NCBI GenBank assembly: GCA_021817875.1
Contig: JAKAFQ010000218.1
Location: 1 to 7,081, forward strand
DNA from: Pseudomonadota bacterium
Lineage (GTDB): Bacteria; Pseudomonadota; Gammaproteobacteria; Steroidobacterales; Steroidobacteraceae
Reading direction: 5' to 3'
Length of the DNA: 7,081 bases
Part shown: positions 1-6,888 of the stretch, piece after piece
Numbering within the stretch: the stretch's first letter is position 1
Layout: each line of letters starts with the position of its first letter
Notes under the pieces: model-generated
Told to the model about the DNA's origin: nothing
The model's database searches: none
The model's input: only the letters and a program-made list of their open reading frames with translations
Made by a program: the position numbers and the translations under genes

Positions 1-600
1 ATTAGCGACACGCGCGGCATGAGCGCCGCCGGGCTCGTGTTGTTCCACAACGGCATCGTTCTTCGCGGAGACGATTCCATCAATATCGCTGGCAGCTATG
101 AGGAGCAAGGCAACGCGATCCTCGCGACGCTTGAGGTCTTGCTGGCCGGTCCGTCGCCGGGCAACGGCAGGGGCTACGAGCGCGTCTATCTGCACGTCCA
201 GGGGCAGCTAGGCGCGCACACCCTATCCGCCTCTGGCGTTGATCTATCCGATGTCTGGCGCCGAGCGGATATCCGCCTGGAACGACGAGCCCTTGTCGAG
301 CCGTATCGCGCCGACGCGCGAGCGCCCGTCGCCGAGACACCGGCCGTTGGGGAGCCCTCACCGGGCGTGGCCGAGAACCAGGAGGCTGCGGCGATCACGC
401 TGGCCGTAGCGAGAGGCTCGCGGGCTGGGTCTATCGACGCAGCCTCTCCCTTGCCGCCGGTGCCGCACGAGGTTCAGGACTGGGCACACGATCAGTCAAT
501 CGCGGCCGCGCCGATGCCACGACCTGATGCTCCGAGCCGTTGCGGGCGATCTCCTGTGCTCGTCGCGGCTGATCCGCGTGTGGGCAAGGCCCGTGTGTAG
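1..600 (+). CDS. GrlR-like small protein, copy A (5' end cut by window)
   Basis: The frame is open from base 1, and the first ATG (base 19) is probably not the true start. Alignment with the paralogue at 6400-5759 runs without a gap from codon 3 (D-T-R-G against D-D-R-G), 20 of 46 positions identical, so about nine codons (27 nt) are missing to the left. A second block, 'LSASGVD' to 'IRLERR' (bases 223-291), matches 'ISASGVD' to 'IRLEQR' at 14 of 23 positions. The paralogue begins like GrlR-family proteins (M-x-DGL-x-K-x-x-F, then NG, GDS and G-T/S-Y); GrlR itself is a small negative regulator of type III secretion in enteric pathogens. After about codon 100 comes a roughly 100-residue Ala/Pro/Arg-rich tail, probably disordered and absent from classical GrlR. 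The stop is TAG at 598-600, and a small membrane-protein gene follows 33 nt later. The fold assignment is by motif only; the regulatory role is inferred. Confidence 0.72.
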   Translation: MSDTRGMSAAGLVLFHNGIVLRGDDSINIAGSYEEQGNAILATLEVLLAGPSPGNGRGYERVYLHVQGQLGAHTLSASGVDLSDVWRRADIRLERRALVEPYRADARAPVAETPAVGEPSPGVAENQEAAAITLAVARGSRAGSIDAASPLPPVPHEVQDWAHDQSIAAAPMPRPDAPSRCGRSPVLVAADPRVGKARV

Positions 601-633
601 CGGACCAACGAGGTTATATCGAGAGACAGCAAC

Positions 634-840
634 ATGTCGTTCTATCGCAATAAACCCCATGGTTCGGTCGTCGATCAATCCCTCATCTTCGATAAGGAAG
701 AACTAGATCTCGCGCTGGATACCGATGAGGAAGGCAGGCTGCCGCCCAACGTCGCATTCCCCCTGATTATTCTGATGTCGCTATCGTGTTGGGCCATCAT
801 CCTAACAGTCGTGCTGTGGCTCGTGGGTATCGCGAACTGA
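634..840 (+). CDS. Small tail-anchored membrane protein, copy A (68 aa)
   Basis: I do not recognise a named family. The first 40 or so residues are hydrophilic, with an acidic stretch (DKEELDLALDTDEEG). Residues about 41-65 form one hydrophobic helix beginning AFPLIIL and ending LTVVLWL, followed by only five residues (VGIAN), so it looks like a C-tail-anchored inner-membrane protein with its N-terminus in the cytoplasm. Over 23 positions the helix shares 16 identities with the one encoded at 5734-5522, including the conserved Pro, two Trp and a Thr. A purine-rich GAGAGA (621-626) lies 7 nt before the ATG. The gene starts 33 nt after the GrlR-like gene and is probably co-transcribed with it. 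Conservation in two diverged copies argues strongly that this short frame is a real gene. The function is unknown; it might anchor or partner the GrlR-like protein at the membrane. Confidence 0.8.
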   Translation: MSFYRNKPHGSVVDQSLIFDKEELDLALDTDEEGRLPPNVAFPLIILMSLSCWAIILTVVLWLVGIAN

Positions 841-1295
841 CGCGGGTGTCGAAGCGGATGAGACGGCTCGCATGTGGATCCCGAAATTGGCGCCTGCCGG
901 GAGGGTGACCGGCACCGACACCCAGCGCCATTCGGGCGGCTGTCCCGCTGTTCCAAGAGGGGGTTGGGACAGCGGGGCAGTTCGGGGGCGGTATGTTGGC
1001 TCGGTTACTGCTGGTGGGGCGGCCCATTCAAACGTGAGAGACAGGTGCTGAGCTATAGGACGACCGTCTGTCTCCAGTGCGAGCGGCGAACGGTTCGGCG
1101 AGGTCCGCGATGAGCGCAGGCGCGCGTCCCGGGAGCCGATCACCGATGGCGGTGCCGCAAGCAGGCAACCGACGCCGATCGAAGCGCCCCCTCTCCGACG
1201 GCTCCGTCGCAGGTTCTGGGTTCCGGACCCTCTGACCCGCACCCGGAAAACTCTGCCCTCCGGAACTCCAATAATGGGTAGGGAGTATTCACTGA
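841..1295. other. Convergent intergenic region without a supported gene
   Basis: This 455-bp stretch lies between the ends of two converging transcription units. Open frames cross it on both strands, for example 1371-802 on the minus strand, but they are Arg/Ser-rich, lack ribosome sites and overlap the 3' end of the glycosyltransferase gene, so I treat them as chance frames. The notable content is the long stem-loop near 938-982. Shorter inverted repeats occur at 1196-1209 (CGACGG CT CCGTCG) and 1218-1230 (GGGT TCCGG ACCC). No T-run follows any of them. Confidence 0.6.
938..982 (+). terminator. Long stem-loop in the 3' region of the small-helix gene; possible transcript end
   Basis: Bases 940-956 pair with 964-980 in an unbroken 17-bp stem with a 7-nt loop (957-963). 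Two of the pairs are G-U (943/977 and 952/968), and two more G-U pairs (939/981 and 938/982) could extend the base. Read from the minus strand, the two internal wobbles become A/C mismatches, so the structure favours plus-strand RNA. It lies about 100 nt after the stop codon at 840. No T-tract follows, so it is not a textbook factor-independent terminator. It may protect or end the mRNA together with Rho, or be a structured RNA element. Confidence 0.45.
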
Positions 1296-4200
1296 TCAGG
1301 CTGCGGCTGAGACGAGATGAGCTTCGTAACTGTCGCGGTAGCCAAGCATGCGAGCTAGGTTCTGCTGGCACCTTGCATCGATCTCATTTTCGGAAACGGA
1401 ATTTTTCCTGCCCCAGGCGCGGTCACCTGTGTTCATACGGGCGACTTGTTCCTCGAACGGCGTATTTGGGTCATACAGTACATACCCAAAGTTCGCTCGG
1501 AAAAAGTCTGCTTCGACGCGCATGCGCTTGCGTGTTTCGTCCGGCGTGTAGTCGTGAGAGTGGAAGACGGCCGCACTAGGCACATAAACCTTGGCGTAGC
1601 CGGCGGCGATGATCCGATCGGCCCAGACCTGGTCCTCGCCGAAATCCACGTCCGGGTAGGGTATTTTCTCCCAGACTGCGCGCCGCAGCAGAGCGTTGTT
1701 GTCGCTGAAGAAGTGCAAACGCTGGCGCCAACCGATGTCGCCGTTTTCATATCGTTTGGGATCAGTATCTCGCGTGAGGCGGAGATGATCCGCGCCGAAC
1801 GCCTCAAAGCCGCTGTTCACGTCGCGCCGAGTGAAGGGACTGGCTTCCGGCCAGGCGTAGTGGCGTCCAAAGGCGCCTGCAGCATCGGGAAAATGGGCGA
1901 GAACCGTAACGAAGTTATAGAGCCATGTATGATCTAGCGGCAGGGCGTCCTGCGTCAAGAACGCTATGTATTCTCCCCGCGCCCGGTCCGCGAGCATGTT
2001 ACGGGTTCGCCCGTGCTGAAAGCTTCGACGCTCGATCCGCTCTACGCGCAGCGCCGGATGTTTGGGTAGGCGCTCGATGGAGCCGTCGTCGGAGGTGCTG
2101 TCCATGATCAGCAACTCAAAGCCCCAAGGGGCCGTTTGTTCGAGGACGCGGTTGACGACTTTAAGCAGCAAGGGGCCCCCATTAAGGGTCGGTATGCAGA
2201 CCGATGCTTTCACGGAATGCTTGCCCGCCCCGGAGCGGCGGGCGCGAGCAACGGTTTCGGTCAAGCCGAGTTTATCCGTGATGGCACGCTCCACGTCAGC
2301 ACCGGCCTTTTCCCACGAGAACTGCGAAACCCATTCCAACGCGCGGGCGGCCGTACGGGCGAGGAGGTCCGGCGAGGACAATGCCCCTCGGATTGAGGCG
2401 GCAATTTCCACCGGATGCGGCGGGCTGAATAGCACAACACCTTCCGGAAAAATGTGGCGGGTGCTGTCTCCATCGAGTTCGAGAACGGGCAGGCCGCAAG
2501 CCATCATCTCCTGAGGCACAAGGGAGTAGTTGGTTGCGGAGAAGCAAATTCCGAGGTCGCAATCACGATAGAGTTCGGCAAGTTGTGCGGGACGAAGAAC
2601 CCCGTGCGAAGTTGCGGGGAACGGTGCCTCGATAAACTCTAGATCAGCTCCAAAGAAATGTGCCTCGAATCGAAAGCCCTGGGCGCTGAGCGACTCAAGG
2701 CCAAGGAGGACGAGTTCTACCGCCCGCCGCGGGGTCCCGGTGCGCGCATAGATGGCGACTCGATTGGCTGCCCGGCGCTCTTGCCGACCTTCGGGAGTGG
2801 CCGGATGATAAATGTCCGTGTCGTAGGCGAGCCAAAAATGCCGCGCCCAAAGCTTATAACGCTCGCGCATCAGGTCGGCGAGCCAGGGGCTCGCGCAGAT
2901 GCAGTTGAGCCGGTAGTAAGCGTACGTCGTCTCCGCGGCCAGCGAGTAGCTGCCGGCGGCGAAGAAACTTGGTTCGTAGTCCTGGACGAAGTAGAACCGC
3001 TCGGCGAATTGGCCGAGCGTTGCGGCGACCGGAACGGTGTCCCACCCTGTGGCAACAAGCGCATCCCCGCAGGCTTCGGCAAGACCGTCAGCGACCAGGT
3101 GCAGGGGCGCGCCAATAGTGGGGAACGCTCGAATGATATTATCGTAGGCTTGCTCTATGGACCCTGAGAGATGCAGGTCCATTAGCCAGATATGGCAGCG
3201 ATGCCCGCTCTGCTCAAGGAAGCGCACCATCCGAAAAATTGTGGTATGGCCTCCACTGCCGATCGTGAAATCGGGAATTACCCAGTGAATAATGAGGCCG
3301 CTCTCGGTTTGGTGGCGCGCCAATGCCCGATACCCTTCAGCGGGCTCTGGCGGGCGGCTCGACGCGACCTCGATCAGGCTACGCAGGCTCGGGTCGGTCA
3401 CCAGCCGGGCTTCCGGGTTAATTAGTAGGGAGGTCGGACCGACGAGCTGTACTGGCCACGTGCGGCGCCCTTCCTTACGGCCGCGGGTTAGATAGTGGAG
3501 GAATGGGTTGATCCCCGCGCGCCGGACGTCCTCATGCGCTGCGAGATAGCGGCGGGTGGAGAACCACGGCGCCGGGTCGCGGCCTTCGCGCCACCCGAAC
3601 AAGCAATAATGCTCAACAGGGTGGATGTTGTTAGCCGCTATATCCTCGTAGGTGCGACGATAATATTCCCAATCGAACTCGGGGCCGACCAAGGCGATTT
3701 CCGTGCGTTCATCAGCGCCCGCGGACAAGGTCTCCGCCGATCGCGTTGGCGGATCGGCCGTCGTTGGTCCCGGAGCGGCGAAGGCAGCATCGATCTGCGA
3801 CCAGTCGATCGGCGGCGAGGCACCTTGGCAGTCGGGCTCACTCAGGCAATGAAGGAACGGGTTAATGCTTTCGACCATCAGTCCAGGGTTCAGGGCCAAA
3901 TAGTCATAGGTGCGAAAGCGTGGGGTGGGATCGCCAAAGGAGAGAAAGCCGGCGGCTGCGTAGTGAACCGCACTCTCATCGATTTTTACCGCAGGGAATT
4001 GTTTAGCGTAGTGCGCGACATCCATTGCGTCGGCCACTCGTCGCGCTTCCCCATCAGCACGCCGAGCTGCGAGCGTACGCATGTCTATTGGCGTCGCTCG
4101 TAGTTCACCACCTGGATCAACGTAGACATCGAAAACCTGGAAGTCCCCAGTCGAGTTCGGCAACCATGCCAACCGTTCGGCGACGAGGGACACAAGCCAC

Positions 4201-4556
4201 CGGGATTTCTTCGGGAATGCGTCTGCGAAGACCACGGTCCCGAAGAAATCGCAGCTGTGACCGGCGGGCAGTCGCTCGAGACCGAGAGTGGGTCGGCCTT
4301 CGGCGACCAAATTGAACTGCTCCGGGTCGCCGCAGGCACTGAGCACCCGGCTCTCGAAAACGAGTACCCCGAGAGTCAACGGAAAACTCGTAGGCCGGTG
4401 AAATCGGATTTCGCAGGTGCCGACGTTCCGTAACTGGCCGGTCAATTCGATAACCAACGACCCGTTTCGGCTTTGTCGCAGTTCGAGCCCAATAATTTGG
4501 ATCGCAGCGCGGCCAGAGCGCGCCTCAGGGGAGGCGGTGACGTCGCCTGAACTCAT
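1296..4556 (-). CDS. Multidomain glycosyltransferase (sandwich domain, repeats, WsaF-like GT4, GT2)
   Basis: A predicted 1086-residue cytoplasmic or membrane-associated enzyme transferring sugars from nucleotide-sugar donors. Residues 18-147 resemble the beta-sandwich domain seen at the front of many alphaproteobacterial glycosyltransferases (LPAGHS, then WLVSLVAERLAWLP). Repeats follow at about 218-238, 294-328 and 331-365 (DYLALNP, INPFLHYL, GWREGRDP). A GT4 domain resembling the rhamnosyltransferase WsaF spans about 421-766, with IGSGGHTTIFR (432-442), FVQDYEPSFF (523-532) and the donor-site stretch SLVPQEMMACGLPVLE (678-693). A GT2 domain begins near 779: SVCIPTLNGG (785-794), DSTSDDGS (819-826), TQDALPLD (868-875), FGRH (896-899), SDNNA (951-955) and GEDQVW (973-978, likely catalytic acid pair), the pattern of rhamnosyltransferases. 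I chose the ATG at 4556, 7 nt past the upstream stop, because GGTGAGAG (4568-4561) precedes it; the ATG at 4613 would overlap the upstream gene. The domains look intact. The sugar and acceptor are unknown. Confidence 0.9.
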   Translation of the reverse strand: MSSGDVTASPEARSGRAAIQIIGLELRQSRNGSLVIELTGQLRNVGTCEIRFHRPTSFPLTLGVLVFESRVLSACGDPEQFNLVAEGRPTLGLERLPAGHSCDFFGTVVFADAFPKKSRWLVSLVAERLAWLPNSTGDFQVFDVYVDPGGELRATPIDMRTLAARRADGEARRVADAMDVAHYAKQFPAVKIDESAVHYAAAGFLSFGDPTPRFRTYDYLALNPGLMVESINPFLHCLSEPDCQGASPPIDWSQIDAAFAAPGPTTADPPTRSAETLSAGADERTEIALVGPEFDWEYYRRTYEDIAANNIHPVEHYCLFGWREGRDPAPWFSTRRYLAAHEDVRRAGINPFLHYLTRGRKEGRRTWPVQLVGPTSLLINPEARLVTDPSLRSLIEVASSRPPEPAEGYRALARHQTESGLIIHWVIPDFTIGSGGHTTIFRMVRFLEQSGHRCHIWLMDLHLSGSIEQAYDNIIRAFPTIGAPLHLVADGLAEACGDALVATGWDTVPVAATLGQFAERFYFVQDYEPSFFAAGSYSLAAETTYAYYRLNCICASPWLADLMRERYKLWARHFWLAYDTDIYHPATPEGRQERRAANRVAIYARTGTPRRAVELVLLGLESLSAQGFRFEAHFFGADLEFIEAPFPATSHGVLRPAQLAELYRDCDLGICFSATNYSLVPQEMMACGLPVLELDGDSTRHIFPEGVVLFSPPHPVEIAASIRGALSSPDLLARTAARALEWVSQFSWEKAGADVERAITDKLGLTETVARARRSGAGKHSVKASVCIPTLNGGPLLLKVVNRVLEQTAPWGFELLIMDSTSDDGSIERLPKHPALRVERIERRSFQHGRTRNMLADRARGEYIAFLTQDALPLDHTWLYNFVTVLAHFPDAAGAFGRHYAWPEASPFTRRDVNSGFEAFGADHLRLTRDTDPKRYENGDIGWRQRLHFFSDNNALLRRAVWEKIPYPDVDFGEDQVWADRIIAAGYAKVYVPSAAVFHSHDYTPDETRKRMRVEADFFRANFGYVLYDPNTPFEEQVARMNTGDRAWGRKNSVSENEIDARCQQNLARMLGYRDSYEAHLVSAAA

Positions 4557-4560
4557 GCCG

Positions 4561-4568
4561 CTCTCACC
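4561..4568 (-). promoter_or_regulatory. Ribosome site overlapping the upstream stop codon
   Basis: GGTGAGAG read on the minus strand lies 4 nt before the ATG at 4556 and contains the TGA stop (4566-4564) of the DUF4915-like gene. It decides the start of the glycosyltransferase in favour of 4556, and it suggests that ribosomes finishing the upstream gene start the next one. Confidence 0.55.
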
Positions 4569-5451
4569 ATGGCACGACCGCATAAATTTCTGGCCCGATA
4601 TTGGAGGTATCAACGAAGCTGGCGCCCTCGGGAGCTACTCGGCCTTGCGCCGTCCGCGGCAGGAAGACGAGCCCAGAAACGTCCTCGGCTAGCGGAGTCA
4701 GCGGATCGAAAGGGCGTGTCCGACCTTCACCAAGACCTACATTGCGCGAGCGATGGCGGTAACCAGAGACGCCGACCACGAAATGCGTCTGCGAGACCAG
4801 CAAGCCGCGTGTATAGCCGCGGATTGTGAATAGGCGTTCGGGGTGCGCGCCAGGCGTCAGCCGCACCAAGTCGCCCGAACCCGATTCGAGAACGAACAAA
4901 TCCCCTTTCGACCACTGCGGGCTATGCGGCTCTCGAAGTCCTTCGAGGATGACCTCGCGGGGGTGAACCTTGAACACTTGGCCGCAGCGCATCTGGTTGG
5001 CGCGGCGGCGTCCGAAAGCGCTGAATACGATGCCCTCAGGACCGACTGCGATGTCATTCAGATGTACCGTGTCGCCTCGGTCGTCTGTTTCCGACCAAAA
5101 GAGCGATATCCTCGGTTCTGCCGCAACCTCGACACGGTATACCTCGTTTGTGCCTGTCGAGATCACGAGCACAGCGTCACGGACTGGCGCCAGTCCATGT
5201 AGATCGTCGCAGCAAGGCATCGGAATGACGAGCTCAGGTTCAAGGTCGCGCGAGCAGACAACGAGCGCCGGCGTTGCGCATTGAAGAGCGGCGATGAACT
5301 TGTCCCCTTGGACAGCTCCACCGGAAATTCCCCTGACGTTAGCAGGTATCCTTCCGGAGGGCAGTGTTTGGCAATGGATCACGCCGGAAGGATCGACGAC
5401 GGCGAGGCGTGCGCAGTCTTGGTTGCAGAATGTGGCTAATACGCGCGTCAT
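4564..5451 (-). CDS. DUF4915-like beta-propeller protein
   Basis: A 295-residue protein resembling the DUF4915 (TIGR03032-type) conserved hypothetical family, predicted to fold as a beta-propeller. Family-like signposts appear in order: DLHGLAPV (83-90), HLNDIAVGPEG (130-140), LREPHSPQW (172-180), FVLESGSGDLVRL (186-198), GYTRGLL (212-218) and GVSGYRHRS (227-235). No signal peptide or membrane helix is visible, so it is probably cytoplasmic. The N-terminal half is unusually rich in cysteine (C9, C13, C58, C66, C80, C81, C156), which might reflect metal binding or disulfides; this is inference. The start ATG at 5451 has only a weak purine stretch before it. The gene lies 70 nt after the small-helix gene and 7 nt before the glycosyltransferase, so it probably acts in the same glycan pathway as a sensor, scaffold or accessory. 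An SMP-30-type lactonase is an alternative, but I see no matching metal-site pattern. No biochemical function is known to me for DUF4915. Confidence 0.75.
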   Translation of the reverse strand: MTRVLATFCNQDCARLAVVDPSGVIHCQTLPSGRIPANVRGISGGAVQGDKFIAALQCATPALVVCSRDLEPELVIPMPCCDDLHGLAPVRDAVLVISTGTNEVYRVEVAAEPRISLFWSETDDRGDTVHLNDIAVGPEGIVFSAFGRRRANQMRCGQVFKVHPREVILEGLREPHSPQWSKGDLFVLESGSGDLVRLTPGAHPERLFTIRGYTRGLLVSQTHFVVGVSGYRHRSRNVGLGEGRTRPFDPLTPLAEDVSGLVFLPRTAQGRVAPEGASFVDTSNIGPEIYAVVPW

Positions 5452-5521
5452 TTTGCGTCCGGGATTAGGCGAGAGTGAGCTCAGCTAACTTTGGCAGCGC
5501 GAGCTGACCGACCGTCGCCAT

Positions 5522-5734
5522 TTACAGGGAAAGCCATAAAACCACTGTCAAAACGAGAACCCACGCAGTCAACGACAGAAGAATGACGAGAGGGAATGCG
5601 GTGTCGAATGGGAACGCTCCTACGCCATGGACGCCGGAACCTCGCGCATCGCCTTCATCGGCAATGTCGATAGGGGCTCCTGATCTCCGGGATAGCGTAT
5701 CCCAGTGGTTGGGCATTGGGAGACTGTCGCGCAT
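5522..5734 (-). CDS. Small tail-anchored membrane protein, copy B (70 aa)
   Basis: Paralogue of the 634-840 product. About 43 hydrophilic residues, acidic and Gly-rich in the middle (DIADEGDARGSG), lead to one membrane helix beginning AFPLVIL and ending LTVVLWL. The protein stops two residues later (SL), so there is essentially no periplasmic tail. The ATG at 5734 is preceded by GGAGG (5743-5739, spacing 4 nt), the clearest ribosome site in the operon, and the gene begins 24 nt after the GrlR-like stop. The N-terminal parts of the two copies share only an acidic, flexible character, so the helix is the conserved element. That suggests the helix itself makes contacts, either self-association or with another membrane protein. 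No named family is recognised. Confidence 0.8.
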   Translation of the reverse strand: MRDSLPMPNHWDTLSRRSGAPIDIADEGDARGSGVHGVGAFPFDTAFPLVILLSLTAWVLVLTVVLWLSL

Positions 5735-5758
5735 GAGGCCTCCGCGAGTCGTCTTTTG

Positions 5759-6400
5759 CTAGATTGGTTCGCGGCCGGGCGGCACGACCGTGGCCGTCGG
5801 CGCGGGGGCCACCTTCGGCCAAGGCGAGCGGCGATCGGTGAGACTGGGTCCCCGCGCATTTGAACCGCGCGGCTTTCTCGTGCTCGCAAGTGCGCCACTC
5901 GGCAACTGCGCCTTGCAGCAGTCGGCTCTCAAGACGCCGGTTCGCGAGCGGCTGCCGGCGCTCGACCGAGTCATTGCCGAGTGCACCGCCTTCACAGCGT
6001 CGAGGGGCCGTCCCTGACCTGTCCGCGCGTCACTCAAGGGAGGCGCGGTCAGTCGTAAGCGGACCTGGCACCTGTCGATGGCGTCTCGCTGTTCCAAACG
6101 AATATTGGCATGACGTTCAGCTTCGGACTGGTCGACGCCTGACGCCGAGATGACGACACTCGCCGCCAATGCTTGGGCCCGTAGACCTACTGGTGGCCCG
6201 CTCGGCTCACTTCGCCGATCTTTGCAGTTAAGCACGACACCAAGCGCAGCCAATGTGCCGTCGCCGCGCTCCCCGTAAGTGCCCTCGATTTCGGCGGTGT
6301 CGCTATCACCGCATACGCGACCGTTGCGGAGAGACACTGATCCACGAGCACGAAACCCGCGGTCGTCGGCGAAATCAATCTTACATAGGCCGTCCAGCAT
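5759..6400 (-). CDS. GrlR-like small protein, copy B, with long C-terminal tail
   Basis: A 213-residue protein, first gene of the minus-strand operon. Residues 1-107 follow the GrlR-family layout: MLDGLCKIDF at the start, then RARGSVSLRNGRVCGDSD, EGTYGERGD, and a last strand block with ISASGVD and IRLEQRD. GrlR in enteric pathogens is a beta-barrel-like protein that binds and blocks the activator GrlA; related proteins occur widely in rhizobia without a known partner. Residues 108-213 are a low-complexity Arg/Ser/Pro/Ala tail of a kind not found in classical GrlR; I see no frameshift but cannot exclude one. The ATG at 6400 has GGGAG (6412-6408) 7 nt before it. The same domain is encoded at 1-600. 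No grlA-like activator lies in this window. A regulatory role is an inference from the family; a binding role for a cell-surface factor is equally possible. Confidence 0.75.
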   Translation of the reverse strand: MLDGLCKIDFADDRGFRARGSVSLRNGRVCGDSDTAEIEGTYGERGDGTLAALGVVLNCKDRRSEPSGPPVGLRAQALAASVVISASGVDQSEAERHANIRLEQRDAIDRCQVRLRLTAPPLSDARTGQGRPLDAVKAVHSAMTRSSAGSRSRTGVLRADCCKAQLPSGALASTRKPRGSNARGPSLTDRRSPWPKVAPAPTATVVPPGREPI

Positions 6401-6558: not shown

Positions 6559-6888
6559 GCCGGCGGCCTCGCGGCAAATCGAAGCGACCTATCAGCCTCC
6601 CGCGAGTTGAAGGCAGCGCACGGCTGCGAACACTGGAAGGTCGACCCGTCCGAGCCGATGGTGGCGCCGCATTACCCTGAGCGCGGCTCGTTTCTTGCGA
6701 GGAGCATCGGTCTTGGCACGAAACCCCGCTGCGTGGATAAGCTCACTGCGCCGGTCCCGTCAGTTGCGGGCCCAAGAGATGCCAGCGCAGAGTCATTGAT
6801 GGCAGAAAGGTGGGGCGTCACGAAATCTCTCTGCCCGCAGGTCGGCGCTCCGCTGTCTCGCCGTCGCGATTCGGTCGGTTTTTTGTGA
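6559..6888 (+). pseudogene. Open frame with coding-like base use; possible gene remnant
   Basis: The frame is open from just after a TAA (6556-6558) to a TGA (6886-6888). Third codon positions are clearly GC-rich, especially over 6607-6669 (19 of 21 codons end in G or C), as in the true genes here. Possible starts are TTG at 6607 and ATG at 6658, neither with a good ribosome site. The product has no recognisable domain, helix or signal peptide. A frame on the opposite strand (6971-6672) also stays open and cannot be excluded. I list it as a possible gene fragment at low confidence; it may be plain intergenic DNA. Confidence 0.2.

What the first reader, a model, noticed from the sequence alone, without database searches (positions are those of the whole stretch)
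1..6400. The same two-gene cassette (GrlR-like plus tiny membrane helix) occurs twice, facing inward, around a glycan locus
Seen directly: the products of 1-600 and 6400-5759 align over two blocks (20/46 and 14/23 identical), and each gene is followed within 24-33 nt by one for a 68-70 residue protein ending in a near-identical helix (16/23 identical). The DNA behind the helices differs at many silent sites, so the copies are old and kept by selection. Inference: the GrlR-like protein and the helix protein act as a pair, and two versions serve one envelope system. I know of no described system built from this pair.
Basis: partly seen in the sequence, partly recalled or inferred. Interest (0 to 1): 0.75.

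Follow-up and report, generated by a model that had tools for sequence, protein, structure and literature searches.

The report
Duplicated barrel plus membrane-helix gene pair
Two old copies of a gene pair, one for a small soluble barrel protein and one for a tiny membrane-anchored helix, lie beside sugar-polymer genes in a bacterium; the pair is real, but what it does is not shown.

Summary
Genes A (1-600 +, cut by the left edge) and B (6400-5759 -) are homologous (37/100 identical, E 1e-14). Each is followed, 33 and 24 nt on, by a gene for a 68-70 residue protein with the same C-terminal helix (16/23 identical; 200 shuffles reach 11 at most). Silent sites are saturated or nearly so and protein changes rarer, so the copies are old and constrained. 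B and its helix gene head an apparent four-gene operon with a DUF4915/TIGR03032-like gene and a double glycosyltransferase; A and its helix gene converge on it. "GrlR-like" is right for the predicted fold (best Foldseek matches are three GrlR chains), not by sequence (Pfam's GrlR finds 0 of 7 members). Relatives are few: 7 barrel and 6 helix proteins among 5.8 billion, own ones included; none confirmed in 84,980 species genomes, plasmids or viral contigs. General co-occurrence and binding could not be tested. Best guess: a cytosolic lipocalin-like barrel held at the inner membrane by a tail-anchored partner, acting on glycan synthesis. In both copies barrel and helix share one frame, parted by one amber codon; chance can explain that.

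The parts
1..600 (+). Gene A: barrel protein, first about 9 codons off the left edge (full form P0008, 208 aa); residues 4-107 an eight-stranded barrel, then about 100 residues of Ala/Pro-rich tail; stop TAG
   Evidence: (block means of pLDDT 75-90 over residues 1-110, nearly all under 50 from 114 on)
634..840 (+). Helix gene a: 68 aa, acidic N-terminal stretch, one C-terminal membrane helix, no charge after the helix
   Evidence: (6 database proteins, its own included)
1296..4556 (-). Two-module glycosyltransferase (WsaF-like GT4 part plus GT2 part), 1086 aa from the ATG at 4556 (a TTG at 4613 gives 1105 aa)
   Evidence: (on the 1105 aa form): PF00535 4.9e-15, PF22772 1.4e-8; junction
4564..5451 (-). 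DUF4915 / TIGR03032-like protein, 295 aa
   Evidence: PF16261 4.3e-17, above its cut-off; TIGR03032 1e-15, below its cut-off
5522..5734 (-). Helix gene b: 70 aa, paralogue of a; GGAGG 4 nt before its ATG
   Evidence: helix 265-291 of the read-through model, block means of pLDDT 51 (261-270), 86, 94 and 82
5759..6400 (-). Gene B: barrel protein, 213 aa, paralogue of A; stop TAG
   Evidence: (one match at E 0.001 in 5.8 billion proteins, 99% identical to itself)
598..636 (+). Junction A-a: TAG, 11 codons without a stop in the frame of A, then the ATG of a
5732..5761 (-). Junction B-b: TAG, 8 codons without a stop in the frame of B, then the ATG of b

Best explanation
Each cassette encodes a soluble, cytosolic lipocalin-like (GrlR-fold) barrel with a long disordered tail, and a small tail-anchored membrane protein whose acidic N-terminal part lies in the cytosol. 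The most likely way of working: the helix protein holds the barrel at the inner membrane, where the barrel binds a lipid, a lipid-linked glycan intermediate or a regulator, and so tunes the neighbouring glycosyltransferase operon or its enzymes. The second cassette is an old duplicate that diverged to serve a related but different ligand or glycan. Shown: homology, gene order, constraint; predicted: barrel fold of A, membrane helix. Inferred: topology, binding of the two proteins, ligand, effect on glycan synthesis.
For: Both pairs keep the same order, strand and close spacing after long divergence. The predicted barrel best matches GrlR in Foldseek; [quoted passage not shown] No hydrophobic leader stretch in B (best 15-residue Kyte-Doolittle mean near the start -0.08); A 1.62, a stretch that the model makes strands. 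All acidic and basic residues of both helix proteins lie before the helix, none after it, which by the positive-inside rule favours N-inside. B and b sit at the head of a tight run with DUF4915 and glycosyltransferase genes.
Against: No locus besides this window was seen, so co-occurrence rests on two copies in one contig. The database counts (P0002 on 14 contigs and P0008 on 13, longest 9722 for both) fit joint carriage but only for this same lineage. The co-fold by read-through was poor (mean pLDDT 42, pTM 0.23) and modelled B's own barrel weakly (block means 35-54 over residues 1-110). VIA-align does not single out GrlR. The tails, and in part the acidic N-terminal regions of the helix proteins, are hardly conserved between copies. 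A's 1.62 hydropathy is borderline for a leader. A-a is convergent to the glycan operon and may belong to another one off the left edge.
Confidence: 0.4

Rival explanations
1. GrlR-like anti-regulators: the barrels bind and block a DNA-binding activator, as GrlR does with GrlA, and the helix protein is a separate small membrane protein that happens to be conserved next to them.
For: Fold match to GrlR, including the GrlR-GrlA complex chains. A fragment like a MucR-type regulator lies just upstream of B.
Against: No helix-turn-helix partner gene was found in the window; the sequence is not recognised as GrlR. The conserved helix gene follows the barrel in both copies.
Confidence: 0.22
2. Barrel and helix are one protein made by partial reading through the amber codon: in both copies the barrel frame ends in TAG and runs on without any other stop into the helix gene, so read-through would give a membrane-anchored barrel and normal stopping a soluble one.
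For: Same frame and a single TAG in both copies. Chance of the same frame and no further stop in both is about 6% before counting the shared TAG.
Against: 6% found after the fact is weak. Helix gene b has a GGAGG before its own ATG, and the N-terminal Met-Ser of helix a is kept in 5 of its 6 database sequences (its own included), P0004 having MT after an extension. P0009 seems to end in another frame than P0008, as if shifted by one base (my reading; its DNA was not seen). The glycosyltransferase and DUF4915 genes end in TGA, helix a in TGA and helix b in TAA, so nothing shows a recoded TAG.
Confidence: 0.08
3. The two genes are only neighbours: the helix protein is a small subunit of the glycan export or synthesis machinery and the barrel something else; the duplication of the segment explains why both are together twice.
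For: One duplication of a two-gene segment would give the same picture; the sample is two copies.
Against: Both genes were retained in both copies despite saturated silent sites and in different surroundings.
Confidence: 0.25

Closest known systems
GrlR (PF16518; PDB 2ovs, 4kt5), cytosolic lipocalin-like regulator of the enterocyte-effacement locus
   Same: Small barrel, best Foldseek match of the predicted model; encoded in a two-gene unit with a partner (GrlR/GrlA bicistronic)
   Different: No Pfam GrlR match in any of 7 members; extra tail of about 100 residues; the neighbour here is a membrane helix, not a DNA-binding protein; context is glycan synthesis
VtrA/VtrC and the parallel ToxR/ToxS, TcpP/TcpH pairs (PMC4933562, passages seen)
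   Same: Idea of a small barrel working with a membrane protein encoded next to it
   Different: There the barrel is periplasmic and formed by both proteins (the latter recalled); here the predicted barrel is complete in one chain and the partner has almost nothing beyond the membrane
Cap15 barrel receptors (7n34, 7n35) of CBASS
   Different: Cap15 carries its membrane helices in the same chain and sits with a nucleotide cyclase (recalled); no defence-system model matches any of the window's six main proteins at E up to 1

Membership tests
GrlR (PF16518) | Recognised by the Pfam GrlR profile | tested here: not met
   0 of 7 members at E up to 10; copies A and B 0 at E up to 1. HMMER filters drop most matches above 0.1
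GrlR (PF16518) | Eight-stranded lipocalin-like barrel as in 2ovs | tested here: met
GrlR (PF16518) | Neighbouring DNA-binding partner (GrlA) | tested here: inconclusive
   None by Pfam among the 6 main genes or, above cut-off, 7 minor ORFs, but the left flank of A is unseen; a MucR-like fragment lies upstream of B
GrlR (PF16518) | Lipid in the barrel cavity | not testable with these tools
   needs protein
VtrC/ToxS-type co-component | Periplasmic barrel with its own membrane anchor | tested here: inconclusive
   Crude hydropathy only: B -0.08, A 1.62; the model makes A's stretch strands; no signal-peptide predictor was at hand
Cap15 CBASS receptor | Membrane helices in the barrel chain and a cyclase gene next to it | tested here: inconclusive
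   No membrane helix in the barrel model; 0 defence models for the 6 main proteins; the left flank is unseen

The most novel reading that the evidence does not exclude
A two-part intracellular lipocalin system: a soluble GrlR-fold barrel recruited to the inner membrane by a tail-anchored helix to sense or hold lipid-linked glycan intermediates, duplicated so that one glycan locus has two versions, with the ratio of soluble to anchored barrel possibly set by read-through of a shared amber codon.
Probability: 0.1. Interest if true: 0.65.

Novelty: new variant of a known kind. Interest (0 to 1): 0.36.

Why it matters
Cytosolic lipocalin-like barrels in bacteria have, as far as I recall, few known roles outside GrlR. 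A rare barrel family kept next to a membrane-helix gene and glycosyltransferases, twice, gives a concrete candidate for sensing of lipid-linked glycans inside the cell. If the two proteins do not meet, it is an ordinary old duplication of two uncharacterised genes.

Tried and rejected
Sequence routes to GrlR: Pfam and NCBIfam scans of the seven members, PDB sequence profiles on whole and trimmed alignments gave no GrlR and only weak matches that I take as chance (Pfam DUF1989 E 0.14; NCBIfam best 0.026; PDB best 0.65). The PF16518 search of one plasmid record gave nothing there and sub-threshold matches in 2 of 14 control genomes.

Routes to further loci: helix alignment against 84,980 species genomes (130 stretches matched a pattern, 0 confirmed by tblastn, which is strict for so short a protein), a degenerate helix pattern there (0; the same pattern finds both window copies, and by my reading allows every codon choice of the helix relatives), viral contigs (41 stretches, 0 confirmed; 77: 30, 0; 78: 0), plasmids (helix a, B and P0012: no match up to E 10; P0008: two Roseomonas matches at E 0.7 and 1, the first antisense to its annotated gene, the second in frame in a 183-residue protein without the conserved barrel start; both taken as chance). 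Six-frame profile search of all eight fetched loci (seven plasmid stretches and one of K-12): best barrel E 2.1, best helix E 1.1.

Viral fold library: no match at E 0.001. VIA-align rows of unrelated barrels (quinohaemoprotein dehydrogenase domain, designed barrels) show that the fold is common. Rfam: none at gathering score. Promoter and terminator patterns: no more than in shuffles. DNA repeats between the cassettes: none of note. Cytochrome oxidase IV match to helix a (E 0.018, below cut-off) and phrog_27987 to helix b (E 0.094): taken as chance membrane-helix likeness. PADLOC: 0 of 6 proteins.

Full report
Observation. The window holds six clear genes: A (1-600 +, open at the left), helix a (634-840 +), and on the minus strand B (6400-5759), helix b (5734-5522), a DUF4915/TIGR03032-like gene (5451-4564) and a glycosyltransferase (4556-1296). 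A and B are homologous over about 100 residues (37/100 identical, E 1e-14). The helix proteins share 16 of 23 residues of their C-terminal helix, against 11 at most in 200 shuffles of that helix, and E 1e-4 over 25 residues. Silent sites are saturated in the helix (pS 0.87) while protein changes are rare (pN 0.17); for the barrel domain pS 0.70, pN 0.42.

Anatomy. B, b, DUF4915 and glycosyltransferase genes follow one another on one strand with gaps of 24, 70 and 7 nt, so B-b looks like the head of a glycan operon; A-a points towards it from the other side and ends 455 nt from the end of the glycosyltransferase gene. GGAGG stands 4 nt before the start of b; a weaker GAGAGA stands before a. In both copies the barrel gene ends in TAG and the helix gene lies in the same frame with no other stop between (11 and 8 codons). 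Random sequence of this composition gives that in both copies in about 6% of cases, so I treat it as a lead only.

Relatives. Among 5.8 billion proteins, helix a has 6 matches at E 0.001 including its own, B one, 99% identical to itself, and a profile of A and B 7 up to E 10, all with E below 1e-31, A's own and B's near-twin among them; none carries a precomputed Pfam domain. Those searches were limited in length (0.55 to 1.75 times the query), so a fused barrel-helix protein would have been missed. The 5 barrel relatives other than P0008 and P0001 are closer to A than to B (43-72% to A; 26-36% to B). No relative was confirmed in species genomes, plasmids or viral contigs. The family thus seems rare or confined to uncultured bacteria. 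The host is probably an alphaproteobacterium: the two best plasmid matches of the glycosyltransferase, of 170 records, are rhizobial (43% and 41% over 56-59% of it), and a MucR-like fragment points the same way; this is inference.

Fold. AlphaFold2 on seven sequences gives A (as P0008) a barrel of eight strands in residues 4-107 with block means of pLDDT 75-90 over residues 1-110, and a disordered tail (mean of the whole 63, pTM 0.49). Foldseek's three best PDB matches of 933 are GrlR chains. VIA-align 2, which only re-ranks Foldseek's list, puts other eight-stranded barrels level with or above GrlR. So the fold is GrlR-like, but common ancestry with GrlR is not shown; sequence profiles do not see it. 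The read-through model of B-b was poor overall (mean pLDDT 42), with only the membrane helix confident; its first five strands lie where those of A do, at low confidence.

Mechanism. GrlR is a cytosolic lipocalin encoded in a two-gene operon with its partner and binds lipids in its cavity (passage of PMC4933562 seen). By analogy, and because the helix proteins have all their charges before the helix and none after it, I favour a barrel tethered at the inner membrane by a tail-anchored partner and acting on lipid-linked glycan synthesis next door. None of the binding, topology or glycan steps is shown.

Novelty. Searches for GrlR (146 papers, 25 listed), GrlR with lipocalin (5 papers), GrlR with Bradyrhizobium (1 paper), TIGR03032 (0), DUF4915 (0) and two mixed searches (175 papers, 8 listed; 0) showed, in the listings that I saw, no description of such a pair; I saw listings and, of one paper, passages only. 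The claim that it is undescribed reaches no further than that.

Noticed in passing
6559-6888 +: Fragment like the C-terminal part of MucR/Ros regulators (Pfam ROS_MUCR E 0.0033, below cut-off, profile positions 81-123 of 123; tblastn finds 138 plasmid records up to E 1, best listed E 0.003, 6 of the 8 rows listed annotated as MucR and 2 with no feature), apparently lacking the rest of the protein; it lies divergent from gene B.
   Followed up: partly
4564-5451 -: DUF4915/TIGR03032-like protein. In the 3 of 10 plasmid records with a match that I opened (L006, L007, L008) the TIGR03032 gene lies by surface-type proteins: an autotransporter, an IPTL-CTERM protein with a sulfotransferase, and cadherin-like proteins.
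   Followed up: partly
3440-4045 - (before the GT4 part of the glycosyltransferase): Short repeats of the type HY...G..EGR in the protein (seen by eye); this stretch also hits several other places in the Ensifer and Rhizobium plasmid loci L001 and L002.
   Followed up: no
5762-6070 -: The tail of B has a G+C content by codon position (0.65, 0.70, 0.76) in another order than its barrel part and the DUF4915 gene, so this part may be under little constraint.
   Followed up: no
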